From positions 1 to 36,298 of the IMG/VR virus record IMGVR_UViG_3300025707_000018: a stretch of DNA of 36,298 bases; one strand, written 5' to 3'. The notes under the pieces were generated by a model, which saw only the letters and a list, made by a program, of their open reading frames with translations, did no database searches and had not been told where the DNA came from. Below, piece by piece: positions 6,507 through 32,566 of this stretch. This stretch comes from a virus. Positions within the stretch are counted from its first letter, which is position 1. Each line of letters opens with the position of its first letter. A program made the translations under genes and the position numbers.

Positions 6507-6670
6507 GAACAATAGTAAAATGGAAAGTAGATAATGCTATTACGCATTTAGACGGACTATTAGATTTAATAGAAAAAGATGAATCGGGAATAAAGCCTAC
6601 GACTATGAAATGGTTGGCAGGTGAAATTAGAATGACAATAGAAATCCTAGGAGGAAAAGAAGATGAATAA
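6503..6670 (+). CDS. 55-aa hypothetical protein before GroES
   Basis: A predicted helical microprotein (LDGLLDLIEKDESGIKPTTM). Its start overlaps the previous stop (ATGA) and its end overlaps the GroES start by 8 bases. The GroES ribosome site GGAGG lies within its last codons, so the two are probably coupled. The function is unknown. Confidence 0.6.
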   Translation: MRTIVKWKVDNAITHLDGLLDLIEKDESGIKPTTMKWLAGEIRMTIEILGGKEDE

Positions 6671-6935
6671 AATAAAACCATTAGATAATAGATTACTAGT
6701 ACAAGCAGACGCAGTAAAAGAGAAGACGGATAGCGGTATCTTAGTTTCTTCTGAAACTCAAAAGAAACCAAATAAGGGAGTAGTCCTTGAAGTGGGACCG
6801 AAAGTTGAGACTCTTAAGTCTGGCGACTATATTACATATCCAGATTATGCAGGTACTATTATATATACCGACGGAGAAGAATACTTGATAATGAGAGAAG
6901 CTGAAGTCTTAGCTATACTAGAGGATTCTAAATGA
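6663..6935 (+). CDS. groES: GroES-like co-chaperonin (Cpn10)
   Basis: A 90-aa protein matching the Cpn10 family in length and order of motifs. It opens with the beta-strand KIKPLDNRLLVQ. The mobile loop is EKTDSGILVSSETQKKP, with the Ile-Leu-Val tripeptide that docks on GroEL. GVVLEVGPKVETLKSGDYITY and a C-terminal strand complete the fold. GroES caps the host GroEL chamber and helps fold large proteins. T4 gp31 is the known phage precedent, needed for capsid folding. No GroEL gene is present, so it must work with host GroEL. A strong ribosome site, CTAGGAGGAAAAGAAG, precedes the ATG. Confidence 0.9.
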   Translation: MNKIKPLDNRLLVQADAVKEKTDSGILVSSETQKKPNKGVVLEVGPKVETLKSGDYITYPDYAGTIIYTDGEEYLIMREAEVLAILEDSK

Positions 6936-7645: not shown

Positions 7646-7825
7646 ATGAAAAATAGATATCAAACTTCTTTTGTTGTAGATAAAAAACTTTGGATAAAGT
7701 TTAAATCTAGAACCCTAAAAGAAGGTGTATCAATTAAAGATAAATTACATAGTCTAATGCTAGACTACGTCAATTCCAAGGAGACAAAAAGTGCCCGCCG
7801 TTGGTTTCAAATACCCAAATGGTAA
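7646..7825 (+). CDS. Small ribbon-helix-helix DNA-binding protein
   Basis: A 59-aa product not obvious from size alone. Residues 7-42 follow the Arc/CopG-type RHH pattern: a polar beta strand (TSFVVDK), a first helix (KLWIKFKSRTLKEG), a turn (VSI) and a second helix (KDKLHSLMLDYV). RHH proteins dimerise and bind operators through the strand. It is the first gene after the promoter at 7611 and overlaps the nuclease start by 35 bases in another frame, so it may repress its own operon. The last 15 residues are translated from the overlap. Confidence 0.65.
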   Translation: MKNRYQTSFVVDKKLWIKFKSRTLKEGVSIKDKLHSLMLDYVNSKETKSARRWFQIPKW

Positions 7826-8672
7826 CACAGTCTCTTTTGACGATGTAAGAGAAGGTAATGTAGATATCCTAGAAATGGGAATGTCGTTACCGACTTTAAT
7901 TGAAATGTCGAAAGAAAGAGACCCTAATAGAAAGCCATCAACTACTGAGCTTCTAACTGGAACTTGTGAATCCTATTTAAAAAGGACTAAGGACTACTTT
8001 GTAGACCCACAAGATAGAGCATTCTCCTTAGCAGGAACTATGCACCATTCTAGACTAGAAAAACACGAAGACGATAGACATCTACTAGAACAGAAATTAG
8101 AAGAGTTTAATATAACTGGAATAGCAGACTTGTATGACAAGAAAACTAAGATGTTATTAGACTATAAAAATACCGGTTCTTATAAATGTGCTCAATTATT
8201 AGGGATGACATACAATCTAACACCAGACCCGTCTGGAGCTAAATACAAATCGAGTGGTAAATGGGGAAGAAAAGGTTCTCCTAAAATGGTTAAACAATGG
8301 TACCGCGACGAAGGTTTAGCAGAATACGGAGACTGGGGTTGGCAATTAAACTGGTATAGATATCTCTTGACAAAATCAGGATACGAAGTCGATAACATGT
8401 ACATACAAGTTACACTTAGAGACGGAGGTCTAGCAGTGTCTAGAGATAGAGGATTAGATAAGCATATTTATTTAATCGAAGTACCAAAATATGACGATGA
8501 GGTATTAGAAAATAGGTTTTTAACAGCTAGAGATGAATTAACTAAAGCTCTAGAGACTGGAAACTTGCCTCAGAAATGTAGTAGTGAACAAACATGGAAT
8601 GGAAGAAAATGTCAATCTTATTGTGACGTAAGAAATCTATGTCCATATAATAATGGGAGTGTAAATGGGTAA
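7791..8672 (+). CDS. Cas4/RecB-like PD-(D/E)XK exonuclease with Fe-S cysteines
   Basis: A 293-aa protein starting at GTG behind a strong site (CAAGGAGACAAAAA). It shows GTMHHSRLE near residue 83, ITGIADLYD (about 107-115), LLDYKN with the Asp-x-Lys catalytic pair (about 123-128) and a QLNWYRYL motif, the order of the RecB-nuclease/Cas4 family. A Cys near 58 and three C-terminal cysteines (C274, C278, C284) match the four-cysteine iron-sulfur staple of Cas4 and AddB. The predicted role is 5'-3' resection of double-stranded DNA to give the single strands used by the annealing protein encoded next. There are no CRISPR features nearby, so this is a recombination nuclease. Confidence 0.8.
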   Translation: MPAVGFKYPNGNTVSFDDVREGNVDILEMGMSLPTLIEMSKERDPNRKPSTTELLTGTCESYLKRTKDYFVDPQDRAFSLAGTMHHSRLEKHEDDRHLLEQKLEEFNITGIADLYDKKTKMLLDYKNTGSYKCAQLLGMTYNLTPDPSGAKYKSSGKWGRKGSPKMVKQWYRDEGLAEYGDWGWQLNWYRYLLTKSGYEVDNMYIQVTLRDGGLAVSRDRGLDKHIYLIEVPKYDDEVLENRFLTARDELTKALETGNLPQKCSSEQTWNGRKCQSYCDVRNLCPYNNGSVNG

Positions 8673-11430: not shown

Positions 11431-11790
11431 ATGAGAAGTGTCTTTACTTATAAGCCACAAGAAGAGTGGCAACGCGAAAAAAGTGAGTTTATGTCTTACT
11501 ATCTATACTTAAAACAAGTAGACCCGGAGGGGTACGAAGATTGGTTCGATAAGGATATAGTAGACCTATATATAATGGGAAAGAAAAATCCTTATTTTTT
11601 TGCACAGAGAGCTAAACCTAGTAATGAGAATGTATCTATGGTCAGAGTTCCTACTAGATGTCCAATATGTCAAAAAGCTTGGGCAATAGAAATGCAAGAC
11701 AGTAATAAATTTGAGCCAGGATATTTAGACCAGTCTGTATACAAGACAATACCTATGGTGAAAGGAGTGTGTCATAAATGCAAGGACTAG
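11431..11790 (+). CDS. Zinc-ribbon hypothetical protein before DnaB
   Basis: A 119-aa protein. The N-terminal half is helical and aromatic (EWQREKSEFMSYYLYLKQVD). The C-terminal half has CPIC (about residue 77) and a final CHKC pair, making a likely four-Cys zinc ribbon. Ribosome site GGGAGAA. Its last 13 bases overlap the helicase gene, so it could be a helicase loader or primase-like accessory, but no such domain is recognisable. Confidence 0.6.
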   Translation: MRSVFTYKPQEEWQREKSEFMSYYLYLKQVDPEGYEDWFDKDIVDLYIMGKKNPYFFAQRAKPSNENVSMVRVPTRCPICQKAWAIEMQDSNKFEPGYLDQSVYKTIPMVKGVCHKCKD

Positions 11791-13091
11791 GAATATTCAA
11801 CGAAGAATCAGAAAGAGCTGTACTAGGTTCAATATTAAAAGATGAAAAATGTTTAGATGTAGTAAAAGACTATATAATAGATAAAGACGCTTTTTATATA
11901 GAAAAACATCAAACGATATGGAATGCTATAATAGATTTAAAATCTGAAAACATACCTATAGACATGGTTAATATATCTAGCAAAGTAAAAGGTATTACTT
12001 ATTACATTACTGGACTAGTAGAGTCTGTGCCTTCTACGGCAAATGTAGAGTCTTATGCAAAACAACTACATTCAGATTGGTTAAGAAGAAAACTTATAAG
12101 ACAGTCTCAAGAGATTGCTAATAAAGCATCTGACGATACAAATGATATAAGTAGTCTTTTAGTTAACGTGCATGACACGGCAAGCTCTTTACTTAATCTA
12201 GAGCCGGGACAAAAATTTGACTTAGACGCTTTGTTATCTATGACTAAAGATTCTTTGTTTAGCAAGAGAAGTTTAACCACCACAGGATTTGAGCCTATTG
12301 ATAATATTATATCAGGTATGACAAAGGGAGAAATAACTATATTTGCAGGTAGACCTGGTAATGCCAAGACTACTACCGTTGCTAACATTGCTAGGAATTT
12401 AGTCTTAGCTGGAAAGAAAGTAGTTATGTTCAACAGAGAGATGCCTAATACCGAAATGATGAAGAAGTTTATTGCTATGGAATCAGAAGGAATAACTTAT
12501 CACATGTTAAGACATAATGCAGTTACTAGTAAATCAGAGATTGAGAAAAGTTTAAATATTATTAAAGAAAGATATACCGACAAATTATTTATGTTTGACA
12601 ATATTAGTAATTTAGAAGGAACTTTTAGAGAGATACGACGTATAAAGCCGGATGTGGTTATTGATGACCATATAGGACTTATAGAATATCCTACTAATGA
12701 CATGAGAGACTTAAGATTAAAAATCGGCGACACTTCAAGAAAGTATAAGTGGTTATGCAAGTCAGAAGAAATGTCTGTAATATTAGTCTCTCAACTTAAT
12801 CGTAATATAGAATATAGAACAGAACGTATTCCTAAGCTTAGTGACCTTGCAGAGTCTGGTAATCTAGAACAAGATGCAGAGATTGTAGCATTCACGCACT
12901 ATCCTTGGACTGTTAATTTTGAGAATGCAAAGAATGGTAAATATGGATTAGATATTGTTGTGGCTAAAAATAGATATGGCTCTACTGGAAAGGCAACCGT
13001 TGGATTTTCTCCAGATACTTGTACTTTGTATGATACTGTGGAAGAAGCAGAGGCAAGTGTCGCCAAGGTTATGCCTGACGTTCCATTTTAA
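11778..13091 (+). CDS. dnaB: DnaB-type replicative DNA helicase
   Basis: A 437-aa protein of normal DnaB length. The N-terminal domain opens with EESERAVLGSILKDE, the usual DnaB start. The RecA-like domain has Walker A GRPGNAKTT (about 192-200, with Ala in place of the usual Gly before Lys), Walker B VVIDDHIGLI (about 293-302), VILVSQLNR (motif H3) and the DLAESGNLEQDAE segment typical of DnaB. It unwinds DNA 5'-3' ahead of the fork. No primase or polymerase is seen in the window, so the phage probably borrows host enzymes or encodes them elsewhere. Its stop overlaps the stop of the opposing late operon. Confidence 0.9.
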   Translation: MQGLGIFNEESERAVLGSILKDEKCLDVVKDYIIDKDAFYIEKHQTIWNAIIDLKSENIPIDMVNISSKVKGITYYITGLVESVPSTANVESYAKQLHSDWLRRKLIRQSQEIANKASDDTNDISSLLVNVHDTASSLLNLEPGQKFDLDALLSMTKDSLFSKRSLTTTGFEPIDNIISGMTKGEITIFAGRPGNAKTTTVANIARNLVLAGKKVVMFNREMPNTEMMKKFIAMESEGITYHMLRHNAVTSKSEIEKSLNIIKERYTDKLFMFDNISNLEGTFREIRRIKPDVVIDDHIGLIEYPTNDMRDLRLKIGDTSRKYKWLCKSEEMSVILVSQLNRNIEYRTERIPKLSDLAESGNLEQDAEIVAFTHYPWTVNFENAKNGKYGLDIVVAKNRYGSTGKATVGFSPDTCTLYDTVEEAEASVAKVMPDVPF

Positions 13092-21164: not shown

Positions 21165-21832
21165 TATTCTTCTATCCCTATATTGTATAAACTTCTATCT
21201 CCTAAACCATAATTATTGCTTCTAAATGTATTAAAACTATCATTGTTAAAAATATTTCTAGTAGCATCAACTACTGGAGCTTTATCAGTCTCTTTAGCTT
21301 GATTTCTTAAAAAATCCATAAACGAAGTTCCCTCAGAAACAGTTCCAGCTAATTCTGCTGCTTGATATCCTCCATATAAACTAGTAGCTGTTGAAACTAA
21401 ATCATTAAAGAAAGAACCTTTTAATGCTTGCGATACAATATCTCTAGTCCCTTGTATAGATGAAAGTAAGTCTTTTCCTGCTTGGTCTGCAAATAGTCTA
21501 TCTTCAAATCCTGGAGCCGCCTTATTTATATCAAAAGTAAATTTAGGTTTTTTTCTAGCTCTTCTAGCACCAAATCCTAAGATAGCTAAAGGAACTGCTG
21601 CTCCCGGAATAATACTACCTAAAGTTTGTAAAGTATCAATCTTTGCTCCCTTCTCTCCATAGTCTTGAATGTCTAGTCCTACATCATCTGCTGCTTCTTG
21701 ATATGCCCTACTTCCTTCTTTTATAGATTTCTCTGATTCAAAGATAGAGCTACCTAACATTCCTAGTGTTTCTTTTTGACCTAGCTGTTGGTCTGCTCTT
21801 AATCCAGCTAATATTTGTGATAATGTTGCCAT
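21164..21832 (-). CDS. Late hypothetical protein
   Basis: A 222-aa protein. Residues about 69-89 are hydrophobic (TLGSIIPGAAVPLAILGFGA), followed by a basic patch RRARKKPK, suggesting one membrane-interacting helix. The start shares TAATG with the stop of the transglycosylase-like gene. It is probably part of the ejection machinery. The family is not recognised. Confidence 0.6.
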   Translation of the reverse strand: MATLSQILAGLRADQQLGQKETLGMLGSSIFESEKSIKEGSRAYQEAADDVGLDIQDYGEKGAKIDTLQTLGSIIPGAAVPLAILGFGARRARKKPKFTFDINKAAPGFEDRLFADQAGKDLLSSIQGTRDIVSQALKGSFFNDLVSTATSLYGGYQAAELAGTVSEGTSFMDFLRNQAKETDKAPVVDATRNIFNNDSFNTFRSNNYGLGDRSLYNIGIEE

Positions 21833-22320
21833 TATATTTTTCCTTTTGTTAATAATAAAAAATGTTCTACACTACCAGCACCTTCAACAGTGTTGTAGTG
21901 TTGTTTCCAATACTTTGCTAATCCTTCGGGACCAGGCTCGATAGCTTCTGGTACACGCCAGTACTTAATCCTACAGTGCAAAACACCAGCAGCAATATTA
22001 GTACGAAGAATCCAATCCCAATTATCAGGCTGAGGGTCAATAAAGTGATAAGGGTCAATTCCAAGAATATCTGCAGCCCTTTGCATAAGTTCAGGCCTAG
22101 CCGATATAAAGTTCTTGCAATTGTCGACAGCTGTTTCAGGTTCCACTTGCCAGAAACTTCTAGCAGGACCAGCTCCAATTTGTTCAATGTATTCGTACTT
22201 GCTCTCCACAAGTCCAGTTGCATAGACAATATCCAAAGCCTCAGCTTTCGCATACTTTTCTCCTAACTGAACGCATACATCTTTAATAAGATTTTTAATC
22301 TGAGTACTATCTACGCTCAT
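21832..22320 (-). CDS. Lysozyme/transglycosylase-like virion protein
   Basis: A 162-aa product starting at 22320, where AAAGGAGAACCA gives a strong ribosome site; the frame runs up to an ATG at 22380 that would add a hydrophobic leader but lacks a ribosome site. The motif VYATGLVESKYEYIEQIG has a Glu in the place of the catalytic Glu of the lysozyme-like fold, followed by GPARSFWQVEP, close to the G-x-AR-x-x-WQ-x-E motif of phage transglycosylase-like proteins. It would cut peptidoglycan locally during infection. It may also serve in lysis, since no other endolysin is visible. It has its own candidate promoter at 22387-22413. Confidence 0.65.
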   Translation of the reverse strand: MSVDSTQIKNLIKDVCVQLGEKYAKAEALDIVYATGLVESKYEYIEQIGAGPARSFWQVEPETAVDNCKNFISARPELMQRAADILGIDPYHFIDPQPDNWDWILRTNIAAGVLHCRIKYWRVPEAIEPGPEGLAKYWKQHYNTVEGAGSVEHFLLLTKGKI

Positions 22321-22386
22321 TGGTTCTCCTTTTATTGTAAGTAAAAACATTACAAATATGATTTGTATGTACCTCACCATAAGAAA

Positions 22387-22424: not shown

Positions 22425-23069
22425 CTATAAATCATTATTATCTATTATTAATTGTGGTGCGTAATAAATATTACCTTCACCTTTTAAATACCAATCTATT
22501 CTAGCTTTATCTGGTATTTCAAGCTCTACTTGTTGGTATGTAATTCTTTCAGTCCTATCGAACTGCTCTAACTCGTGTCTCTTATGATATTTCTGCTCTC
22601 CTGAATATTGACTTTCTTCAGATAAGAAGTTACTATACCAAGTTAATATAGTACCTACTTTACAATGTTGTATAATACGACTTGGAAAATGTCTTTTATT
22701 TAACATATCTCCAAAACCATCATAAAATACTCCATCATACTTTTTATCTGTAGGTATATCATCGTACCAGTCACCTTTAACTGGTATTACATTAGGCTTA
22801 TCTTTAGCCCACTCTACTAAATTAGCATATATTCCATCATTAATTTCAACTATAGTATGAGATTCAATATCGTGCTCTTGTATTAATCCAGCACTAATAC
22901 CCATACCAAATCCAAATTCTAATATATGTCCACCATTAGCACACACCATATCAGCGTGTTTCTGCATTATAGGTGTTTCCCAAGTTGACATTACATCCCA
23001 ACCTAGTTTCTCATCTATAATACAATCATCTTTAATTGTATATGTTGCAGTTGCAGCATAACCCTTCAT
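22425..23069 (-). CDS. Guanidinoacetate/arginine-methyltransferase-like SAM enzyme
   Basis: A 214-aa protein of the class I SAM methyltransferase fold, closest in pattern to the guanidinoacetate methyltransferase / arginine N-methyltransferase 2 family. VMSTWETPIM (26-35) matches the VMERWETPYM signature of GAMT, ILEFGFGMGISA (49-60) is the SAM-binding loop, HTIVEIND (71-78) contains the acidic residue for the ribose, VIPVKGDW and YDGVFYDGFG are the post-I and catalytic strands, and the C-terminus (YYAPQLII) matches the GAMT end. It probably methylates a guanidino group, either a small molecule or an arginine in a protein. It overlaps the previous gene at ATGA and lies next to the fibre. Confidence 0.75.
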   Translation of the reverse strand: MKGYAATATYTIKDDCIIDEKLGWDVMSTWETPIMQKHADMVCANGGHILEFGFGMGISAGLIQEHDIESHTIVEINDGIYANLVEWAKDKPNVIPVKGDWYDDIPTDKKYDGVFYDGFGDMLNKRHFPSRIIQHCKVGTILTWYSNFLSEESQYSGEQKYHKRHELEQFDRTERITYQQVELEIPDKARIDWYLKGEGNIYYAPQLIIDNNDL

Positions 23070-23422
23070 CTACCTCCACCTCCACCTTCTTCGTGTTGTC
23101 CACCTATACAATGGCTCATATGAAAAGGTGCAGTGCCTATATTCAAAGCATCTGCTGCTGGTATAGCTGTTCCACCACTAGATTGTAATGGATTATTAGA
23201 ACCTCCATAGTTATCCATAGTGTCTGCTGCACCACCTACACTTTCAAAAGAATAAACCTTGCTATCTCCTGAAACTCCAGTACATAGTCCTTTTAGACTA
23301 ATATTTGTCATTTGATTTCCACCTACCGTATGGTCGGTATCTTCTAATCCACACGCTTCTGATAAAGCTGCACCATTATAAGCCAATCCTACATTAGTAT
23401 TACCTACTACTGGTAATGCCAT
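23066..23422 (-). CDS. Glycine-rich fibre-accessory protein
   Basis: A 118-aa protein rich in Gly, Ala and Asn, beta-like and without charged helices, ending in EEGGGGGR. The codons for this end (GGAGGTGGAGGTAGATGA) also form the ribosome site of the methyltransferase, which starts in the ATGA overlap. It sits between the 82-aa fibre-linked gene and the methyltransferase. A small tail-fibre tip or adhesin is likely from context, but no family is recognised. Confidence 0.6.
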   Translation of the reverse strand: MALPVVGNTNVGLAYNGAALSEACGLEDTDHTVGGNQMTNISLKGLCTGVSGDSKVYSFESVGGAADTMDNYGGSNNPLQSSGGTAIPAADALNIGTAPFHMSHCIGGQHEEGGGGGR

Positions 23423-23424
23423 AC

Positions 23425-23673
23425 TTAACCCTTAATCTTTTTATATTCTACAATGTCTGCTTTTAATTCAACTACTCTTGCTTCTGCATTTACTAAGTCT
23501 GCTTCTGCTTGTGTAATTGCATCATCAACTGGTTTTGAATCTGTCCAATCTACTACTGTTACATCTTTACCTGCTGCATCTTTCATTACTCTTGTATGTT
23601 TGATTTCAACTTGTTTAGGTGCATCACCTACTGGTGGTGCTTCTACTATTTTTTCTGCTATTACTTTAGCCAT
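23425..23673 (-). CDS. 82-aa fibre-linked coiled-coil protein
   Basis: Basic N-terminus ([20 protein letters not shown]) and a C-terminal heptad-like helix (residues about 50-80: [20 protein letters not shown]). It overlaps the fibre stop by 8 bases, which suggests a fibre chaperone or assembly partner. The function is unknown. Confidence 0.6.
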
Positions 23674-26600
23674 TTAACTTGTCCTTTAATTCGTTTATTT
23701 GTTCTTGTTGTTCTTGTATTGCTTTTATTAATACCGAAGATAGTTTTGCATAATCTACTACTTTATGAGTTTCATCTGATTTTAGGTCATTAACCTCTTT
23801 TACTACTTCAGGGATAATCTTTTCTACTTCTTGTGCAATTACACCAATGTCGTGTACACCTTTTCTTTTTTCTTTCCAGTCAAATTCTACTGCTCTCATT
23901 TTCATTACATCAGATAAACCATAAGGTGTATCTTTAATATTCTTTTTAAGTTTTCTATCAGAACCAACCGATGTTGAATAAGCAATAACATCTGCATCTG
24001 CATGAAAATCTCCATCAGTTTCAAATCTAAATTCTTCAGTACCATTAACATATACACCCATATTTGATGATGACTTTAATCCTTTAGCATAAGGGAAGTT
24101 GTCAGTTTGAGTTCCATCTACATTTTGAAAAGCACTTGCTTCAAAACCAACACCCCAACCATCATTATAAGTATCTACATCTGCATTAAATCCAATCTGA
24201 ACATTTCTAACTGTAATTTGTGGATATTGCCAAGTTGATGCTAATTCTCCAATATAGACACAATGATTAGAGCCATCATGTCCGAATCTAACTGTAAAAT
24301 CTCTTGTTTGATTTGCAGATAATATCAATGCTTCCTCATTAATCCATTCATTGCTTCCTGCTGTTTGATAAGCATATCCTGCTAGATAACAAGTAAAAGA
24401 TTCGTCTGTTGTATAATCATATACATCTACCCAAAAAGATAACATATCTGCTGGACCACCACCTGTTGGAAGTGTTATTTTAATAGCACCTGTATGAGTA
24501 CTAGTACTTGTTCTATATGTTCCACCATTGGGGTGTATAACTGTACCACCCTTACTTGCATCGCTATGTTCTGCAAATAATCCACCACCACCACCAATTC
24601 TAATATTACCTGCTACATCTAATTTTTCTGCAGGCGATGTAGTTCCTATACCGACTCTTTGAGAAGAATCAATATCTACTGCTCTCGTACCACTGGTGAA
24701 AAATGCAATAGTGTTATCATTTTCTGCATAAAAGTTTAATGTATTTCCAGCACTTTGTAAGAAAAATTGTCTTGTTCCACTATCATATACAGATAAATAT
24801 GGACTACCAGTTCCTTCTAATCTTAACACTTCATCAGTTGCTCCAGAACTTATGTGAAGTTTTGTACCAGGTGATGCAGTTCCTATACCGACTCGTTGAG
24901 AACTATCTATCCTCATAGCTTCAGCATTACCTGAATACCATACATGACCACTTGTTCCTGAAGCAGCACCATACAGCATAAATCCACCTGCATAAGCATT
25001 ATCTTTTGGTCCAACATAACAATTATTATTTGAATGTAATCCAAGTAATCCTATATCATCTCCATCAGCATCTTCGCCCATAAAGAATGTATTATTAGAA
25101 ATCATTACATTTCCAGCTACATGAAGTTTCTGTGCAGGTGCTGTAGTTCCTATACCGACATTACCTGAACTATCTACTCTTACTCTTTCAGTTAAAGTTT
25201 GATTATCTGCACTTGCTGTTGCTACTTGATTAATTGTAAAATTATTTGAAGTATCTGCAGTTAAAACTATACCCTTAACACCTCTTGTTCTAAATGTATT
25301 TGCATTTGTTCCTGCTTCACTATATAAAGCCAAAAATGGATAACCTTGTGAAGAATTACAACCTAATGTTGAGCCATATCCACTTTGATTTACATGCCCA
25401 AAATTAAAAGCATTTCCATTTACTCTTGCATTTATTTTTGCCCCACCTTGTCCTGCTGTGCTACCCATTTGTAAAGTAGAAGATATAGTAGAAGCCCCAG
25501 TTAATGCTAATGTGCTTCCATCAAAAGTAAGATTAGATTCTGTATCTATATTATTTGTTCCACCATAAGTCAATACACCATTAGCTGTTGTGCCATCTAT
25601 AGTGATTCCACCTAAGCTATCAAAAATATCTTGTGCTATAAATCGTTTAGGTGCTTCACTTGCATCTGCATCAAATAATATCATAAAGTCTGAAGCATTT
25701 AAAGTTGCAGTTGATAAAGCAGACTTATTTAGATTGATTGCTAATTGTCCTGTGCCTGATACATTTAAACTTGTTGAAGCAATATCTGTATTGATTGTTA
25801 CTGTATCTGTTGCACCTACTATTGTTGCAATACCAGTACCACCTGCAATATCTAAGGTATTTCCCTGTGCAATACTTTCTGGTGTTCCACTATCTCCAGT
25901 TACATTAAATGTAGTTAACTGATTTGTATTTGTATCTGTATAATTTCCAGCATGAATATTAGTACCACCTTGGTCTGCAGTCCAATCTAAATGCTCAGCT
26001 GCTACAACTCCATTTAGAGAATTGTGAGTTAATAATGCTTCTATTTCTGAAAAAGCTTTTCTTTTACTGGTTGTGCCATCTAATACAATAAATTCATCGG
26101 TAGCAACCATAGTTTCAGTCATATCGTCTAATCCTGAACCGTCAAAAGCTATGTCATTTGCATTAGCAGTAATACCAGTACCACCAATAACATTTACAGT
26201 AGTTCCAGTTTTGGTTAATCCTGTACCAGATGTATCAAATTTTGTAGCTAACTGTGTTTGAATATTTGAAGTTACTCCATCTAAATAATCAAACTCTGTA
26301 TTAGTTACACCAGTTGCGTGTAAGGTATCTAAATAATTTAATTCTGTAACACTTCCTGTATATCCATCTAATACATTAAGTTCTGCAGGAGTAGATGAAA
26401 TTTGAGTTGTAGTAACTGCTGCTAATAAAGGAATATACCCACTTGCATCTAACAAATATTGTGTGTTGTCATCGTTTGTGGGGTCAACAATAGATAATAT
26501 TGTTTCATTTACATCGGCAGTAGCTCCTTCAAATTTTATTGCATTTGCAGCTTCCATTGTTACCGTATCTACTGTTGTTGTTGTTCCTGCTACGGTTAAA

Positions 26601-27547
26601 TTAGGAACTAATAATTCTCCTGTACTTGGATTATATCGTAAAGCACCAGTATCATCTAATAATGTATTTGATTCATCATGAAAAACTACTGGAAAATTTG
26701 TATTTGCTGAGTTATTTTGTACTATTACTTTTCCTACAGTTAAATCTTCAGCTGTACCTGTTACATTCGTCATCACACCACTAGCTGGTGTACCTAGTGC
26801 TGGATTTGTTAAAGTAGGACTTGTTAAAGTTTTGTTTGTTAAAGTTTGAGTTTCTGTTAATTGTACAATATTACTATTAGTAATAGATGTAATTTTAGTT
26901 GCATTCCCCACAGTTAAGTTTGCAGCTGTTCCTGTTACATTCGTCATTACCCCACTAGCAGGAGTTCCCAATGCTGGAGTTGTTAATGTAGGAGCTGTTA
27001 AGGTTTTATTAGTAAGTGTTTGAGTTTCTGCTAATTGTACAATATTGCTATTGGTGATAGATGTAATTTTGGTAGCATTACCTGAGGTTAAATTTGCTGC
27101 CGTGCCAGTTACGTTAGTCATAACACCACTTGCTGGTGTTCCTAATGCAGGTGTAGTTAAGGTAGGTGCTGTTAAAGTTTTGTTTGTAAGAGTTTGTGTG
27201 CCTGTAAGAGTAGCTACTGTAGAGTCTATATTTAGAGTTATATTACCACCAGAACCACCACCACTTAAACCTGTGCCAGCTGTAATACCAGTTACGTCAC
27301 CTTCAGAAGATGAACTACCAGCTACTATTAAGTTTGTTACATCTCCAGTAGTTTGTGTTGCTTTTGCAGAGCTTGCAAGTTCAGTAAATTTTTGTTCGTA
27401 TACAACACCATTTCTTTTTTCTTGTTTTACAAGTACTCCATCTTCTAGAAATGATACTGTTTCACCTTCTCTAATATTAGTTTTAGATGGTCTTACTCTA
27501 AAGAAAGAGTCAATGCTGTTGACATTATGGTTGCCGGATTTTGGCAT
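23666..27547 (-). CDS. Tail fibre/spike with S74 intramolecular chaperone domain
   Basis: A 1293-aa protein. The N-terminal 75 residues are a likely virion-attachment part, followed by beta-rich Thr/Asn/Gly repeats, including 2.7 tandem copies of a 58-aa unit (residues about 117-273). A large receptor-binding region follows. Two copies of an [11 protein letters not shown] unit and one close variant, typical of fibres ending in S74 domains, lie in residues about 825-990. The C-terminal about 98 residues form the autocatalytic chaperone: SDRKLKKNI with Ser1196 as expected cleavage residue, [31 protein letters not shown], and a final coiled coil. This domain trimerises and clips itself off. Starts in a TAATG overlap with the nozzle-like gene. 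Confidence 0.85.
26729..27199 (-). repeat. Tandem 174-bp repeat inside the fibre gene
   Basis: Two full copies (27026-27199 and 26852-27025) and a partial third (26729-26851) of a 174-bp unit encode [20 protein letters not shown] plus 38 further residues. The copies are diverged at DNA level but nearly identical in protein sequence, as expected under purifying selection for a beta-structured shaft. Unit number could vary by recombination. Confidence 0.8.
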
Positions 27548-30078
27548 TATGAAGGTCTCTTATTAGTTTGTCTGTAATCAATATTTATATCATTTATATC
27601 TATTTTACCATCAGAGGTAACTTTTAGTGATATAGATTCACAGTTTTGATTTACTGTAAATGCTTTAATTTGATAGTTGGCATTATTAACCGCCTGTCCT
27701 GTTAGTGCTGTATAGCTAGTGCTTCCATCTAAAGCGTAAGCTAATGTTAGTGTTGTATTTGCTGCTGCATCTCTTGCTGCAACGTAAACCTTTCTAATTT
27801 TTTTTACTAATCCTGGATTGCCAAAATCTATATCTTTAGTAATTAACTCTACGCTTTCAGTTCCATAATCGTTGGTTAGTGAATGAATTTTATCATCTGA
27901 ATGTTTAAAGAAATATACACCATCAAATGATTCTACAAAGTTAGACACATCTGCACTACCTACGCACGCTCTTGTGGTCCAACCTTGAGTTGCAAAATCA
28001 AAACAAAAAACTTTATCTTCTGTATCTACACCACTATTTGATGTCATTGCAGAGTCTTGTAAAACGTATAATTGTTTATATTTTGGCTCGTAAGATATAG
28101 AAGGTTTTAATAAAACATCACTTAGCTCTTGTCCTGCTTGCCAAAGATTGTCATCTAAAGAAGCTGTTAGTTCTTTTGGCATACTCTGTCCATCAAATAG
28201 ATATACTCCATTTCTGTTTACCCAAGATATTCCAAAAGGTGTTTTAGCTACAGAGTTTTGAAAAATACATCCCATACCATCATACTCTGCTTCTAAGTAC
28301 CAACCAGCATCTGAAGTAGATGATACATTAATAACATATAATTTTTTTTGTTTAAAAGCTAACAACCTATTACCTAAGCTATGTAAGGCTGTAATAGAGT
28401 CGCCGTCACTAATACCAATGTCTAGATAATAACTATCAGGAAATGTTGCAAATCTATTAACTGGACTATAATATATTCTATCGTCAAGTACTTCTCCATT
28501 CTTTTTAACGTTTCCAATCCAAGCCCTTCTAGCACATACCGTAGCAGCTTTAAATCCTCCAGATGTACCTATTGCTGCTCTAGTTCCCACATCAATACTT
28601 TCTTCGTCTTGAGAATATCCGTTAATACTTTCGTAAGTATCCAAAGAAGGATTTACTACATCTAGTCCTGTAACGTCAGCAAAGTCTGTATCAGAAGGGT
28701 GTGTGAATGCATTAAAATCTTCAAATAGATTTGTTCTAACTCCTCTTTGATAATCTACGTCTAAAAATAGTATCCATCTACCGTTACCGTCTTTTTTTCT
28801 AGTATAAACTCTTACACCTTTTTCATTTTTATACCCACTAAATCCAGTGTCTTTTATTCTAAATCCTACGTTAGTAAAATATGCACCAGTTGTTATTGGG
28901 AATAAAGTTGTTTTAGGTGTTTGAGGTAATGTTTCATTGTCTTGTAAGTCTACTATACTGTGACAAAATTCGTAAGAACCTGCTTCCCAACCACCACCAG
29001 TAACACTTATACTTGTTGTTAAGGTTGTTTGAACTTTTGCTCCAGTAGCATGCTCTAAAGCACCGGTTCCAAATACATCTCTATCTACAAGAAGTTGTAG
29101 TACGTCTAAAGTTCCTGAACCATTCATGGTATTTGTACTTCTTACTCTCATAGCTTCACCGTTAATATGTATAATTTCTCCTACAAGATTCGCTATTCCT
29201 CCAGTTGATATACCACTACTTCCTCCATAGTTTAAAGAAACAGATGACATATCATTTGCATCTGTTAGTTTTAAATGAATTAATTTATCTGTTAATTTTA
29301 TGTCAGCAGTAGGGTCTGGATTTGAATCATTTGGATTGGGCGTTACTTTAAGAAAGTTATCAGAGTCAGTATTTTCAATAATATCAAAAAATGATTGAGA
29401 ATCTAAAGTTGGGTCTGTCTGTAATTTTATACTAAACTCTCCAGCTCCAGGGTCAGTAAAACTTGTTCCTTTTGTTATAGCCTCAAATTTAGTAGATAAT
29501 TTTTCTATTTGCATAGTAGTGTCTAACCAACCACTAATATCAGTTCCAAATCTATCTGTTTCATTTACATATACTAAACGTCTTGGCTCTTCATGTGAAT
29601 CTGGAACTTCATCTACTACGCTTTCATCCGATACAAATAAAGTACCATCAACGTAATAGTATACTGGTAATACTCCGTTTTCAGTTTGCATGTCAATAAT
29701 AGCATCGTTAGAATCTTCTGTTAAAGTAAGAGTGCTAGTATTACCAAATTCTCTGGCGTATGTTAAAATCTTTGTACTTGTTCCTGAGCCATTATTTTCT
29801 GGGAATGCGAATACTTGAACTGCAGTTCCCAAGGTTTCACTGTTGTCTGTATTATATTGACTGTTAAACATAAAGGCACCATACCCCGCAACTGTTTGTG
29901 TGTCAGGTACATTGGCTGATGATTTAGCACTTGAGACAGAAGAAGACAATATTAAACCCGGATTATGTAAGTTTACATTATTTGCTTTTGATACTTGGTT
30001 AGGTAAAATATCCCTAGGAGAGGACTTAGTGTTAAGCCCCTTACTAAAGTCATTGAGCTGTAAAGATTTTCTTGGCAT
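27547..30078 (-). CDS. Tail nozzle / tail tubular-type structural protein
   Basis: An 843-aa, beta-rich protein beginning with [20 protein letters not shown], the F-x-x-GLNT opening typical of podophage nozzle or stabilisation proteins. The central region ([20 protein letters not shown] and [16 protein letters not shown]) has propeller-like strand repeats. No enzymatic motif is seen. It would form the end of the short tail through which DNA passes. The next gene downstream is the fibre, which fits. Both gene boundaries are TAATG overlaps. Assigned from motif and context. Confidence 0.65.
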
Positions 30079-30449
30079 TATGCAGACCTTTTGACTTTTT
30101 CAAAACTACGCATTCCTCCAAGACCTAAAAGTCCCATTAATACCGTAGTCAAAGTAGTCATATCAAATTCAGGTAATACAATATTGTATCCCGCTGCAGT
30201 TAATCCAAAAGCCATCATAGGTTGCAATACAAAGTGATAACACAATGCAAAAGCACAAACCCATCCTACAAAAGGTCTCCACCCACTTTTAAATAGACTA
30301 GAAGAACCTGCTTCTATCTTGTTAACTTCTATTTGAGCCTTATTAATCTCCATGATTAAGTTTGCTTTCTCTTCTTTATCTAAAGTAAACTTGTCTACAT
30401 GACCAGCTACTTTGTCAATAATACTTGCTACTACATTTAACTTAGGCAT
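30078..30449 (-). CDS. Holin of the 3TM type
   Basis: A 123-aa protein starting at the ATG at 30449; the frame could extend to a TTG at 30464. A Lys/Glu-rich helix (residues about 15-45) is followed by two hydrophobic segments (FVGWVCAFALCYHFVLQPMM and TTLTTVLMGLLGLGGMR) and possibly a weak third. SGWRPFVGW matches the 3TM-type phage holin family. It would open the inner membrane so that the endolysin can act. It lies next to the basic protein at 30472. Confidence 0.7.
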   Translation of the reverse strand: MPKLNVVASIIDKVAGHVDKFTLDKEEKANLIMEINKAQIEVNKIEAGSSSLFKSGWRPFVGWVCAFALCYHFVLQPMMAFGLTAAGYNIVLPEFDMTTLTTVLMGLLGLGGMRSFEKVKRSA

Positions 30450-30471
30450 ATTCCACACCCGCAATCACATA

Positions 30472-30777
30472 TTATCTGCATTTCCATCTCCTTCTCGCCT
30501 GCCTTATTCTAGAATTAGGATTGTTTCTAGTTTTAGCAGAGCTTCGTTTTAGTTGTCCTAAAGACCTTGCACAATAAGACTTTCTTCTTTTAGCTGCTTT
30601 GCTACCTTTTTTTACTTTACCAGTAACAGCAGTCTTTAATTTACTTCCAGGGTTTGCTTTCCTATAAGCTCTAACTCCCTTAGCAGTCATTCCTGCTCCA
30701 GACTTAGTCTTTCTATAATTAGCTCCCTTTCCTTTTGTAGTTTTAGGTATAGCTTTTTTTCTTTTTCTTGCAGCCAC
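30472..30777 (-). CDS. Small very basic late protein (DUF6321-like)
   Basis: A 101-aa protein with about a third Lys/Arg, starting at GTG in a TAGTG overlap. The core GVRAYRKANPGSKLKTAVTG, followed by KRRKSYCARS and a terminal RRRWKC, is a conserved phage signature (the family known as DUF6321, of unknown function). Its charge suggests binding DNA or RNA, perhaps packaged with the genome. Two conserved Cys lie near 69 and 100. Family assignment is from memory of the motif. Confidence 0.6.
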   Translation of the reverse strand: MAARKRKKAIPKTTKGKGANYRKTKSGAGMTAKGVRAYRKANPGSKLKTAVTGKVKKGSKAAKRRKSYCARSLGQLKRSSAKTRNNPNSRIRQARRRWKCR

Positions 30778-31886
30778 TAATATATTAACCAGTTAAGTCC
30801 AACCTTAGACTCATAAGATTCCACGTCATACATTGACAAGAATCTTCCTTCTAAAAATACTCCAAACTTATTAGTTAGTTTCCAACCATATACTAGTCCT
30901 AAGTCATAATCCATTCCATTGTCAGCTAGTTCATAGTTAAATGAATAGTCTGACATACCTTTGGTAATTGGATAAGTAGTAACCCATATATGTAACCAAT
31001 TCTTAGGCGTGTACTTATAATAGTCTGCACCTAAAGATAAACTTAGTTCATTTTGATACCCTAAGTCTTTAGCAAATTTTTCATTATAATCTTGCACTAA
31101 ATCAGAATATACTACTCTATAAAATTCTTCATCAGTTATTGCTACTACATTCCCCTCAGCATCAGTCCAACACCAATCCCAGTATTCATAACCAAATTGA
31201 GTAAAATGTTGTTTCCACTCATCTTTATAAGGACCATCTGCATATCCTGCTTCGTCCCAAGCTAGTAACCAAAATGGAATAACTCCATCAGGGTCAATAC
31301 CTAGTTCTTCCCAATATAAATCTATTGGTCTAAAATCTAAGTATGCTGGGTGGCTTCTTCCTGCAACCCCTAAAGATAAAGCTAAATTACCTAAGTTCTT
31401 TTTATATCGCATATCTAATGCTGCAAATTCAACTCCTTCTAACCCTCTTGAATCGTAATTTGCTTTTAGTAAAAAGTTATTTCCTAAGTATCTGAGCATA
31501 TACTGCTCATTAACAAACTCTTCTTCAAACTCTTTGTGGTCTGAATATTGAATTACATATTCCCAACCAGTAACAATATTACCAATAGCAGCACTTTCGT
31601 TTATAGGATTTTCACTTCCTGAAAACCAAACTTCTGGCTTGTTCTCATATCCGTATCTGGCGAGTTTACGAATACCAAAGGTCATAACAGAATGGTCATC
31701 TCTTTCATCTATTATTTCTTGTAATTGCCCACCTGACACTTGGTATTGTAATTCTTTAGTTATTGGACTACTAAAACTATATGCACCATAAATAGTACTA
31801 AACTTGAAAAAGTCTTGTCCTATTAAAGTCCCCATTAATAATACACTACATAGTAATTGTTTATACCATCTTGCTAAATATATCAT
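30777..31886 (-). CDS. Secreted outer-membrane beta-barrel-like protein
   Basis: A 369-aa protein. Residues 1-23 form a signal peptide (basic start, LLCSVLLMGTLIG core) with likely cleavage before QDFF. The rest has alternating polar and aromatic residues and ends in aromatic LNWLIY, like outer-membrane barrels, with strands such as LALSLGVAGR and LSLSLGADYY. It is host-like rather than virion-like, so it may be made late and inserted in the outer membrane, for example for superinfection exclusion or release. The signal peptide is clear; the barrel is inference. It overlaps the thioredoxin-like gene by 4 bases, so the two are probably linked. Confidence 0.6.
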   Translation of the reverse strand: MIYLARWYKQLLCSVLLMGTLIGQDFFKFSTIYGAYSFSSPITKELQYQVSGGQLQEIIDERDDHSVMTFGIRKLARYGYENKPEVWFSGSENPINESAAIGNIVTGWEYVIQYSDHKEFEEEFVNEQYMLRYLGNNFLLKANYDSRGLEGVEFAALDMRYKKNLGNLALSLGVAGRSHPAYLDFRPIDLYWEELGIDPDGVIPFWLLAWDEAGYADGPYKDEWKQHFTQFGYEYWDWCWTDAEGNVVAITDEEFYRVVYSDLVQDYNEKFAKDLGYQNELSLSLGADYYKYTPKNWLHIWVTTYPITKGMSDYSFNYELADNGMDYDLGLVYGWKLTNKFGVFLEGRFLSMYDVESYESKVGLNWLIY

Positions 31887-32287
31887 CTAAACTTCCTTAG
31901 TTGTATTTCATCAATTTCATTATTGATTTTTCTTAATATTGTATCTTTGTCTAACTGAAAAGATAATCCTGCTTCAAATCTGCGAATTTCTTTTCCATAT
32001 TCAAACATAATAATTGTCGGTACTGACTTTACATTCCATTCATCTCTAATTGCAGCACCAAACTCTGGGTTGTCTATACTTGCATTAAATATAGCACAAT
32101 TCTTTAATTTACTTAAATCTATATTAGCAGAAAAATTCCAATCTGCATTCACTTGAACTACAACACATTCATCCTGACTTAACAGTTGAACTTGTTGTAA
32201 ACTTCTAATGTTATCCTGTGATACCAATGATGATGGTAACAAAGCTAAGCCAAGCCAACACCATAGTAATATAATATATCTGTTCAT
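31883..32287 (-). CDS. Secreted thioredoxin-like protein lacking CxxC
   Basis: A 134-aa protein. Residues 1-23 are a signal peptide (LLWCWLGLALLPSSLVS), with QDN after the likely cleavage site. The remainder follows the thioredoxin pattern: VVVQVNADW (42-50), IDNPEF, IRDEWNVKSVPTIIMF with the cis-Pro at 90, and GKEIRRFEAG. At the place of WC-x-x-C it reads WNFSA, so the catalytic cysteines are absent; C41 and C64 are elsewhere. It therefore cannot be a normal disulfide reductase and may act as a binding or chaperone module in the periplasm. Paired with the OMP-like gene by ATGA overlap. Confidence 0.65.
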   Translation of the reverse strand: MNRYIILLWCWLGLALLPSSLVSQDNIRSLQQVQLLSQDECVVVQVNADWNFSANIDLSKLKNCAIFNASIDNPEFGAAIRDEWNVKSVPTIIMFEYGKEIRRFEAGLSFQLDKDTILRKINNEIDEIQLRKFR

Positions 32288-32293
32288 CGTTCA

Positions 32294-32566
32294 TCAATCT
32301 TTCTTATTTAATATATATGTTTCAATACTTTTAATATCTTCTTTGATTTCTTCAACATCTTCTTGTGTGTCTAATACTGCATCTCTAATCATTTGGTCTT
32401 TTAAATCATATTCAGTTCGTGATACTGAGGGTGCAGGTAATTCTTTAGCTAGCTGTATATCAGCTTGTAGAGTAAACCACATACCAATAATCATTGCAAG
32501 CGTTACTACACCGCTTACTATAGTTTCTAAACTTAATGTTAGTTTAGTCTGTTTATTTACTTCCAC
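32294..32566 (-). CDS. Membrane protein with coiled coil, possible lysis accessory
   Basis: A 90-aa protein starting at GTG. It has one hydrophobic span (residues about 14-34, VSGVVTLAMIIGMWFTLQAD) and then an acidic coiled-coil helix (about 50-85). This layout fits an inner-membrane spanin-like or holin-accessory protein; no family is confirmed. It overlaps the basic microprotein gene by 14 bases and is separated by 6 bases from the thioredoxin-like gene. Confidence 0.55.
   Translation of the reverse strand: MEVNKQTKLTLSLETIVSGVVTLAMIIGMWFTLQADIQLAKELPAPSVSRTEYDLKDQMIRDAVLDTQEDVEEIKEDIKSIETYILNKKD

What the first reader, a model, noticed from the sequence alone, without database searches (positions are those of the whole stretch)
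30777..31886. Late-expressed outer-membrane-like protein paired with the thioredoxin-like gene
A signal peptide and a barrel-like pattern ending in aromatic residues are atypical for virion genes. Overlapping by 4 bases with a second secreted protein suggests an envelope-remodelling pair, for example superinfection exclusion, receptor masking or aid to release. Both proteins have Gln-Asp at the probable cleavage point, a feature frequent in Bacteroidota-like hosts.
Basis: partly seen in the sequence, partly recalled or inferred. Interest (0 to 1): 0.5.

Follow-up and report, generated by a model that had tools for sequence, protein, structure and literature searches.

The report
Phage outer-membrane barrel with dead thioredoxin
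An uncultured marine phage group carries a gene for a barrel-shaped protein that probably inserts into the outer membrane of the infected bacterium; it is tied to a small inactive thioredoxin and an inner-membrane coiled-coil protein next to the lysis genes, so it may help open the cell at the end of infection.

Summary
The ORF is real (30777-31886, minus, 369 aa). It overlaps the upstream gene by 4 nt and belongs to a marine-phage family under strong purifying selection: 74 distinct proteins in 209 loci, median dN/dS 0.09. AlphaFold (mean pLDDT 60) plus structure comparison gives a transmembrane beta-barrel (Z 14-15 to Tsx, NanC, KdgM and autotransporter barrels). A signal peptide and a C-terminal Tyr/Phe are present in 69 of 69 distinct members. 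The barrel is therefore well supported; no named family, isolate phage or bacterial relative was found.

The partner has a thioredoxin fold but no CxxC (0 of 103 distinct proteins), so it is probably not a redox enzyme. The real unit is a trio: coiled-coil inner-membrane protein, pseudo-thioredoxin, barrel (order kept in 54 of 55 contexts). The first two form a wider core pair; 45 of 64 further loci carry that pair without the barrel. A holin or endolysin lies within 2.5 kb downstream in 57 of 68 barrel contexts.

Best guess: an envelope-spanning late module acting on the outer membrane at lysis (0.4). Surface exclusion and a nutrient pore remain open. A Bacteroidota host is contradicted by Shine-Dalgarno use (56-67% of genes versus 5-7% in three flavobacterial phages).

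The parts
30777..31886 (-). Outer-membrane beta-barrel protein ('OMP', 369 aa; signal peptide about 1-23, Gln24 first mature residue, C-terminal Tyr)
   Evidence: ORF and translation; AF2 model and fold matches; family alignment A1, 44 sequences; dN/dS
31883..32287 (-). Secreted pseudo-thioredoxin ('TRX', 134 aa): thioredoxin fold, cis-Pro motif SVPT kept, CxxC replaced (ADWN), two invariant Cys (41, 64), C-terminal tail LRKFR of a kind found almost only when an OMP follows
32294..32566 (-). Single-TM, N-in/C-out coiled-coil protein ('TM', 90 aa), GTG start; i-spanin-like topology
   Evidence: directly upstream of TRX in 54 of 55 contexts
30472..30777 (-). Basic DUF6321 protein (101 aa, GTG start overlapping the OMP stop by 1 nt); variable insert between OMP and holin
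   Evidence: Pfam PF19846 E 1.2e-11
30078..30464 (-). Holin, GTA_holin_3TM family
   Evidence: Pfam PF11351 E 7.2e-16, PHROG 3427 'holin' E 2.5e-26
31892..31898 (-). Shine-Dalgarno-like AAGGAAG inside the 3' end of TRX, in front of the OMP start (translational coupling)
   Evidence: SD in the last 25 nt of TRX in 58 of 60 OMP-linked versus 12 of 43 OMP-less
21832..22380 (-). Probable lysozyme-like endolysin (likely true start at MSVDS, behind an in-frame SD); not adjacent in the window, but follows the holin in some relatives
   Evidence: PHROG 3108 (unknown function) E 1.4e-22; lys homologue after the holin in L182, L151, L163; no PDB sequence match, so the enzyme name is my reading of the sequence

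Best explanation
A phage-encoded outer-membrane beta-barrel made late in infection and translated together with a periplasmic, redox-dead thioredoxin and an inner-membrane coiled-coil protein. Proposed mechanism: the TM protein sits in the inner membrane with its coiled coil in the periplasm; the pseudo-thioredoxin is exported and held by its disulfide; the barrel is delivered to the outer membrane. Together they span the envelope, and after the holin and endolysin have acted they help open the outer membrane or release progeny: a spanin-like job done without a lipoprotein. The barrel is an add-on in one subgroup that carries the core TM-TRX pair. Shown by computation: the ORF, the family, the barrel and thioredoxin folds, the missing CxxC, trio order, overlap and ribosome-binding site, lysis-gene neighbourhood. 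Inferred: export, outer-membrane insertion, the disulfide, complex formation, late timing, the lysis role. Barrel identity alone about 0.85; the lysis/egress role is the figure given below.
For: Barrel: mean pLDDT 60 model with 14 long antiparallel strands; 66 PDB chains at E<=1e-3, top NanC 4.3e-7; VIA Z 14.9 to EstA (3.6 A, 194 aligned) and Tsx (3.0 A, 185), 14.7 NanC, 14.2 KdgM, 8.5 or more for all 50 rows listed. Thioredoxin fold: VIA Z about 12-13. Unit: TM-TRX-OMP order in 54 of 55; distance-matrix correlation OMP-TRX 0.78, OMP-TM 0.63, TRX-TM 0.66, versus 0.12-0.26 with the holin (n=40). Lysis neighbourhood: holin or endolysin within 2.5 kb downstream in 57 of 68 distinct OMP contexts, including two unrelated endolysins (lys family after holin in L182, L151, L163; a protein with its HNEGGY motif 444-470 nt after the OMP in L175, L078, the L175 one matching PDB 2ikb at E 5e-15). 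Most telling relative: L289 has M15 endolysin (PF08291 E 2e-21), 2-TM protein, TM, TRX, then a protein with lipobox and C-terminal TM, i.e. u-spanin architecture, where the window has the OMP. No lipobox protein found in four OMP-bearing records, and only four short candidate ORFs near the cassette in 58 contexts (three of them related 32-aa ORFs at the TM-TRX junction of L066, L077, L074).
Against: The OMP is absent from 45 of 64 TM-TRX loci with room and from 15 of 15 OMP-less records searched whole (control, 6 of 6 OMP-bearing records hit), and four of those records show no credible lipoprotein either: so either TM-TRX works without an OM partner, or this is not the OM-opening device. The holin is not co-inherited with the trio (r 0.12-0.26). 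A holin is found near only 9 of 37 OMP-less pairs. No barrel is known to me to act as a lysis effector. The model is of moderate confidence, with residues 19-96 below pLDDT 50. The higher trio correlation may only reflect tight linkage.
Confidence: 0.4

Rival explanations
1. Surface modification: the barrel is placed in the outer membrane to exclude superinfecting phages, mask the receptor, or keep released progeny from sticking to debris; the pseudo-thioredoxin is its periplasmic chaperone or lock.
For: Barrel fold; accessory, patchy distribution; other phage-encoded outer-membrane proteins exist among BFVD matches, e.g. Aeromonas phage phiAS5 E1A206, E 3e-4; PA-2 porin and T5 Llp as precedents (recalled, no call).
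Against: Sits in the structural/lysis block rather than among early genes. The long loops are more conserved than the short turns (79-94: 0.39 bits, 181-219: 0.64, 243-276: 0.74, 306-325: 0.55, versus 1.0-1.8 for four short turns; two other short turns and 353-354 are low too, 0.08-0.34), unlike fast-evolving surface loops, though the strand map comes from a weak model and which side the loops face is unsettled. No PADLOC match.
Confidence: 0.28
2. Uptake pore: a 12-14-strand substrate channel (Tsx/NanC/KdgM-like) that brings nucleosides or oligosaccharides into the infected cell, with TRX as a periplasmic binding partner.
For: Tsx, NanC and KdgM, all narrow substrate channels, are among the best structural matches; conserved long loops fit a specific ligand.
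Against: EstA, NalP and other autotransporter barrels score about equally; rows within Z 1 are tied. No sequence relation to any porin family. Late position and coupling to the TM-TRX pair are unexplained.
Confidence: 0.2
3. Structural or virion-associated beta-rich protein, not a membrane barrel; the N-terminal hydrophobic stretch is incidental.
For: Lies among structural genes; mean pLDDT only 60; single-sequence alternation only slightly above shuffles.
Against: 69 of 69 have the signal-like segment with Gln and a C-terminal Tyr/Phe; the listed top PDB matches are membrane barrels; no PHROG structural family.
Confidence: 0.07

Closest known systems
Narrow 12-stranded channels Tsx, NanC, KdgM (structures 1tlw, 2wjq, 4fqe)
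   Same: Barrel fold, Z 14.2-14.9 over 152-185 residues; signal peptide; C-terminal aromatic
   Different: 5-10% identity, no Pfam or NCBIfam porin match; strand number not settled; coupled to a thioredoxin-fold gene in a phage
Two-component spanins (Rz/Rz1) and unimolecular spanins of Gram-negative phages
   Same: Inner-membrane protein with N-in TM and periplasmic coiled coil; envelope-spanning set near holin/endolysin; L289 has a u-spanin-like gene in the OMP's place
   Different: No lipoprotein; a soluble thioredoxin-fold protein and a beta-barrel instead. Spanin definitions from PMC6139136 (abstract and passages)
Thioredoxin family PF00085 / TIGR01068
   Same: Fold and cis-Pro region
   Different: No CxxC in 103 of 103; P0002 scores below the curated cut-offs (15 v 23.5; 18.7 v 96.8 bits)
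Phage-encoded outer-membrane proteins (BFVD entries such as Aeromonas phage phiAS5 E1A206; A0A516LKJ4, unnamed)
   Same: Phage gene, predicted barrel; A0A516LKJ4 matches with E 1.1e-17 at 22% identity
   Different: Others match at E 1.7e-5 or weaker; their neighbourhoods were not examined; no relative of the OMP in 50,697 INPHARED records

Membership tests
Outer-membrane beta-barrel proteins (fold class) | Closed transmembrane antiparallel barrel | tested here: met
   AF2 model and barrel matches Z up to 14.9; moderate confidence, strand count and closure not settled
Outer-membrane beta-barrel proteins (fold class) | Sec signal peptide and C-terminal aromatic residue | tested here: met
   69 of 69 distinct members for each, by pattern; no signal-peptide predictor was available
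Outer-membrane beta-barrel proteins (fold class) | Located in the outer membrane | not testable with these tools
   needs fractionation
A named porin/channel family (Pfam or NCBIfam) | Score above the curated cut-off of a porin or OMP model | tested here: not met
   no porin/OMP family among 44 members (Pfam) or for P0001 and one distant member (NCBIfam)
Tsx / NanC / KdgM structural families | Best structural match clearly above unrelated barrels | tested here: inconclusive
   EstA, Tsx, NanC, KdgM within Z 1
Thioredoxin (redox enzyme) | CxxC active site | tested here: not met
   0 of 103 distinct partner proteins
Thioredoxin (redox enzyme) | Thioredoxin fold with cis-Pro | tested here: met
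   Z about 12-13; V89 P90 T91 invariant
Two-component spanin | i-spanin: N-terminal TM, periplasmic helical/coiled-coil domain | tested here: inconclusive
   hydrophobicity, charge and heptads read from the TM sequences; length variants differ by a 7-residue gap in the coiled coil; no topology or coiled-coil predictor was run
Two-component spanin | o-spanin outer-membrane lipoprotein | tested here: not met
   no lipobox ORF in G001, G002, G004, G008 and only four short candidates near the cassette in 58 contexts; simple pattern scan
Two-component spanin | Needed for outer-membrane disruption in lysis | not testable with these tools
   needs complementation of a spanin-null laboratory phage
Superinfection-exclusion protein | Blocks a second infection of the expressing cell | not testable with these tools
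   no host in culture; no PADLOC match
Phage of a Bacteroidota host | Genes lack Shine-Dalgarno sites | tested here: not met
   SD before 14 of 25 genes in the window and 22 of 38, 35 of 52, 19 of 33, 17 of 27 in four relatives, versus 2 of 30, 2 of 36, 2 of 39 in three flavobacterial phages; L289's record is near random (5 of 26, random 0.148)
Phage of a Bacteroidota host | Gln directly after signal-peptidase I cleavage | tested here: met
   69 of 69 and 63 of 63; but high Gln values also occur outside Bacteroidota (PMC5837995, passages: Ignavibacterium album 77%)

The most novel reading that the evidence does not exclude
TM plus pseudo-thioredoxin, with the barrel as outer-membrane component where present, form a lipoprotein-free, envelope-spanning lysis machine: a third kind of spanin in which a redox-dead thioredoxin bridges a short inner-membrane coiled coil to the outer membrane, and a beta-barrel replaces the lipid anchor.
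Probability: 0.25. Interest if true: 0.75.

Novelty: new variant of a known kind. Interest (0 to 1): 0.48.

Why it matters
How phages of abundant, uncultured marine bacteria get through the outer membrane is largely unknown, and spanins were not found in 91 of 677 phages surveyed (PMC6139136, passage). If the trio or the core pair opens the outer membrane, it would offer a new answer for phages without recognisable spanins; if the barrel instead alters the surface or uptake of the infected cell, it is still a defined, testable way in which these phages remodel their hosts.

Tried and rejected
Cellular donor: pattern scans of genome contigs with A1 (18 stretches, none confirmed) and A2 (111, none confirmed) found no bacterial relative; this shows only that no close relative carries those peptides.

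Isolate relatives: none for the OMP in INPHARED with P0001 (E<=1); a distant member at E<=10 gave two unrelated matches, E 3 and 5. TM: none. TRX: only partial matches, at most 56% of the query in the rows listed, to thioredoxin genes and others. The BFVD match A0A516LKJ4 had no name in the table and I did not obtain its sequence.

Redox pairing of TRX with the OMP: rejected, no CxxC in TRX and no invariant Cys in the OMP. 'OMP and TRX are an inseparable pair': rejected. The TRX C-terminal tail ([LIM][RK][RK][FLW]...) is in 60 of 60 OMP-followed and 1 of 43 other TRX; tempting as a docking tail, but it also carries the OMP's ribosome-binding site (SD 58 of 60 versus 12 of 43), so it cannot be read as an interaction by itself. 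In that tree the OMP label needs 3 changes on 103 rows (shuffled mean 33.1); few columns, L289 on a very long branch. Strand topology: long conserved loops versus short turns suggests N and C termini in the periplasm, but residues 19-96 are poorly modelled, so not claimed. VIA rows for named families were not used for membership. In one search my script chose wrong ORFs after the holin in L182 and L151 (overlapping genes); one search also missed overlapping lys hits; both were replaced. One search dropped loci without a complete OMP end and contexts with too little flank (55 of 74 kept upstream, 59 of 74 downstream); one search kept 68 OMP and 37 OMP-less contexts with 2.5 kb downstream; one search set aside 11 of 75 loci as too short. 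Holin detection was by similarity to the window's holin plus motifs, so OMP-less counts may be too low. The SD list (29 of 40, random 0.107) used a looser motif set and hand-picked genes; one search is the fair comparison. Literature: ten searches of the held library listed no paper whose title or abstract describes this trio; I read passages only of PMC5837995, PMC6139136 (also its abstract), PMC3556154 and PMC5648845; PMC10653852 I saw in the search listing only.

Full report
What is there. The ORF at 30777-31886 (minus) encodes 369 aa, starts inside the stop of a 134-aa gene (31883-32287, 4-nt overlap), and its own stop overlaps the GTG start of a basic DUF6321 gene by 1 nt; a GTA-type holin follows at 30078-30464 and a 90-aa single-TM gene precedes the pair at 32294-32566. 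All are in the minus-strand block of structural genes, opposite the plus-strand replication genes (DnaB 11778-13091, exonuclease 7791-8672). Late expression is inferred from this. The window is a 36.3-kb phage record; the same cassette, at 100% identity, is in a 56.9-kb contig with terminase, portal and capsid genes.

Family. IMG/VR holds at least 127 stretches encoding an OMP relative and at least 116 encoding a TRX relative (the best 80 of each fetched). After merging the searches, 209 loci with a complete OMP end give 74 distinct OMPs, 63-100% identical to the window's in the 80 rows of the single-protein search. Median pairwise dN/dS: OMP 0.09, TRX 0.15, TM 0.14, holin 0.11. No relative in two bacterial genome scans or, for the OMP, in isolate phages.

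OMP fold. With 44 aligned sequences AlphaFold2 gave mean pLDDT 60, pTM 0.53, long antiparallel strands from residue 68 on, and residues 19-96 below 50. Foldseek's top PDB match is NanC (E 4.3e-7; 66 chains at 1e-3 or better); VIA-align gives Z 14.9 (EstA 3.6 A/194 aligned; Tsx 3.0 A/185), 14.7 NanC, 14.2 KdgM, 13-14 for NalP, AaaA and EspP barrels. This fixes the fold class, not a function. BFVD gives one strong relative (A0A516LKJ4, E 1.1e-17, 22% identity, unnamed) and weaker barrels of other phages. Signal-like start with Gln: 69 of 69; C-terminal Tyr/Phe: 69 of 69, versus 0 of 21 other minus-strand genes. Single-sequence alternation is only modestly above shuffles.

Partner. The 134-aa protein has a thioredoxin fold (VIA Z about 12-13; profile match to thioredoxins E 1.3e-4) but no CxxC: 0 of 103 distinct proteins; 102 of 103 have exactly two mature Cys (L289 has none), at positions 41 and 64 in the window protein, i.e. 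at the starts of two predicted strands. I infer a structural disulfide and a binding rather than redox role.

Unit. TM-TRX-OMP order holds in 54 of 55 distinct contexts with more than 800 nt upstream; the exception, L214, has TM elsewhere on its contig. Distances between OMP, TRX and TM correlate (0.63-0.78), those with the holin hardly (0.12-0.26; n=40), which may reflect linkage. The TM family is wider: at least 576 stretches. Of 75 fetched loci, 64 have room; all 64 have TRX, 19 have the OMP and 45 do not. Fifteen OMP-less records searched whole have no OMP, with 6 of 6 OMP-bearing controls hit. So TM-TRX is the core and the OMP an add-on of one subgroup. TRX proteins followed by an OMP carry a tail (60 of 60 versus 1 of 43) that contains the OMP's ribosome-binding site (58 of 60 versus 12 of 43).

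Neighbourhood. A holin or endolysin lies within 2.5 kb downstream in 57 of 68 OMP contexts and 9 of 37 OMP-less ones. Two unrelated endolysins occur next to it: the lys family after the holin (L182, L151, L163) and an HNEGGY-motif protein 444-470 nt after the OMP (L175, L078); the L175 one matches PDB 2ikb (E 5.2e-15; a GH108-type enzyme by my recollection). In L289 the order is M15 endolysin (PF08291 E 2.1e-21), 2-TM protein, TM, TRX, then a 143-aa protein with a lipobox and a C-terminal TM, the architecture of a unimolecular spanin (definition from PMC6139136). No lipobox protein was found in G001, G002, G004 and G008; near the cassette in 58 contexts there were four short candidate ORFs, three of them related 32-aa ORFs at the TM-TRX junction. 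Against a simple spanin reading, OMP-less relatives G011, G012, G014 and G015 show no credible lipoprotein either.

Host. The Gln fits the Bacteroidetes Q-rule (PMC5837995, passages), but Shine-Dalgarno sites precede 14 of 25 genes of the window, 22 of 38, 35 of 52, 19 of 33 and 17 of 27 in four relatives, against 2 of 30, 2 of 36 and 2 of 39 in three flavobacterial phages, which are at their random level; a Roseobacter and a Pelagibacter phage gave 17 of 39 and 11 of 30. L289's record is near random (5 of 26 versus 0.148) and may infect an SD-less host. The host of the window phage is thus probably not a typical Bacteroidota; the same paper reports high Gln values in some other bacteria.

Mechanism. 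Best supported: an envelope-spanning late module at the outer membrane, most likely for lysis or release (0.4). Steps shown: genes, folds, overlap and ribosome-binding site, neighbourhood. Steps inferred: export, insertion, complex, timing, effect. Rivals: surface exclusion/masking (0.28), uptake pore (0.2), structural protein (0.07). The anatomy is firm; the function is open.

Noticed in passing
   Followed up: partly
L289: 552-2462: Compact lysis cassette in an SD-poor phage record: M15 endolysin, 2-TM protein, TM, pseudo-thioredoxin, lipobox plus C-terminal-TM protein (u-spanin architecture).
   Followed up: partly
window 6663-6935: A GroES-like co-chaperonin gene (PHROG 3188, E 2.9e-22) among the replication genes.
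   Followed up: no
G001 (L220-L222) versus window 22425-27547: In the 56.9-kb contig the region after the methyltransferase gene leads into a different 1535-aa fibre-like gene and about 10 kb of further structural-looking genes, whereas the window goes straight to the 1293-aa fibre; a structural-module variant or an assembly join.
   Followed up: no
L075 and L239 (IMGVR_UViG_3300020477_000033): Both ends of this 53.6-kb contig carry an OMP region (complete at one end, cut at the other), so the genome is probably circularly permuted or terminally redundant, about 51 kb.
   Followed up: no
window 32294-32566 and A3: Length variants of the TM protein differ by a 7-residue gap in the coiled coil, i.e. 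one heptad.
   Followed up: partly
L085: A TRX of the OMP-linked type with its tail but no OMP behind it (holin about 500 nt on): a possible recent OMP loss.
   Followed up: no
L243 (Roseobacter phage CRP-810) 45677-46432: Nearest isolate by capsid (31% identity) also carries an annotated 'OmpA family protein' near a lysozyme gene, and a GH108-plus-holin pair elsewhere.
   Followed up: no
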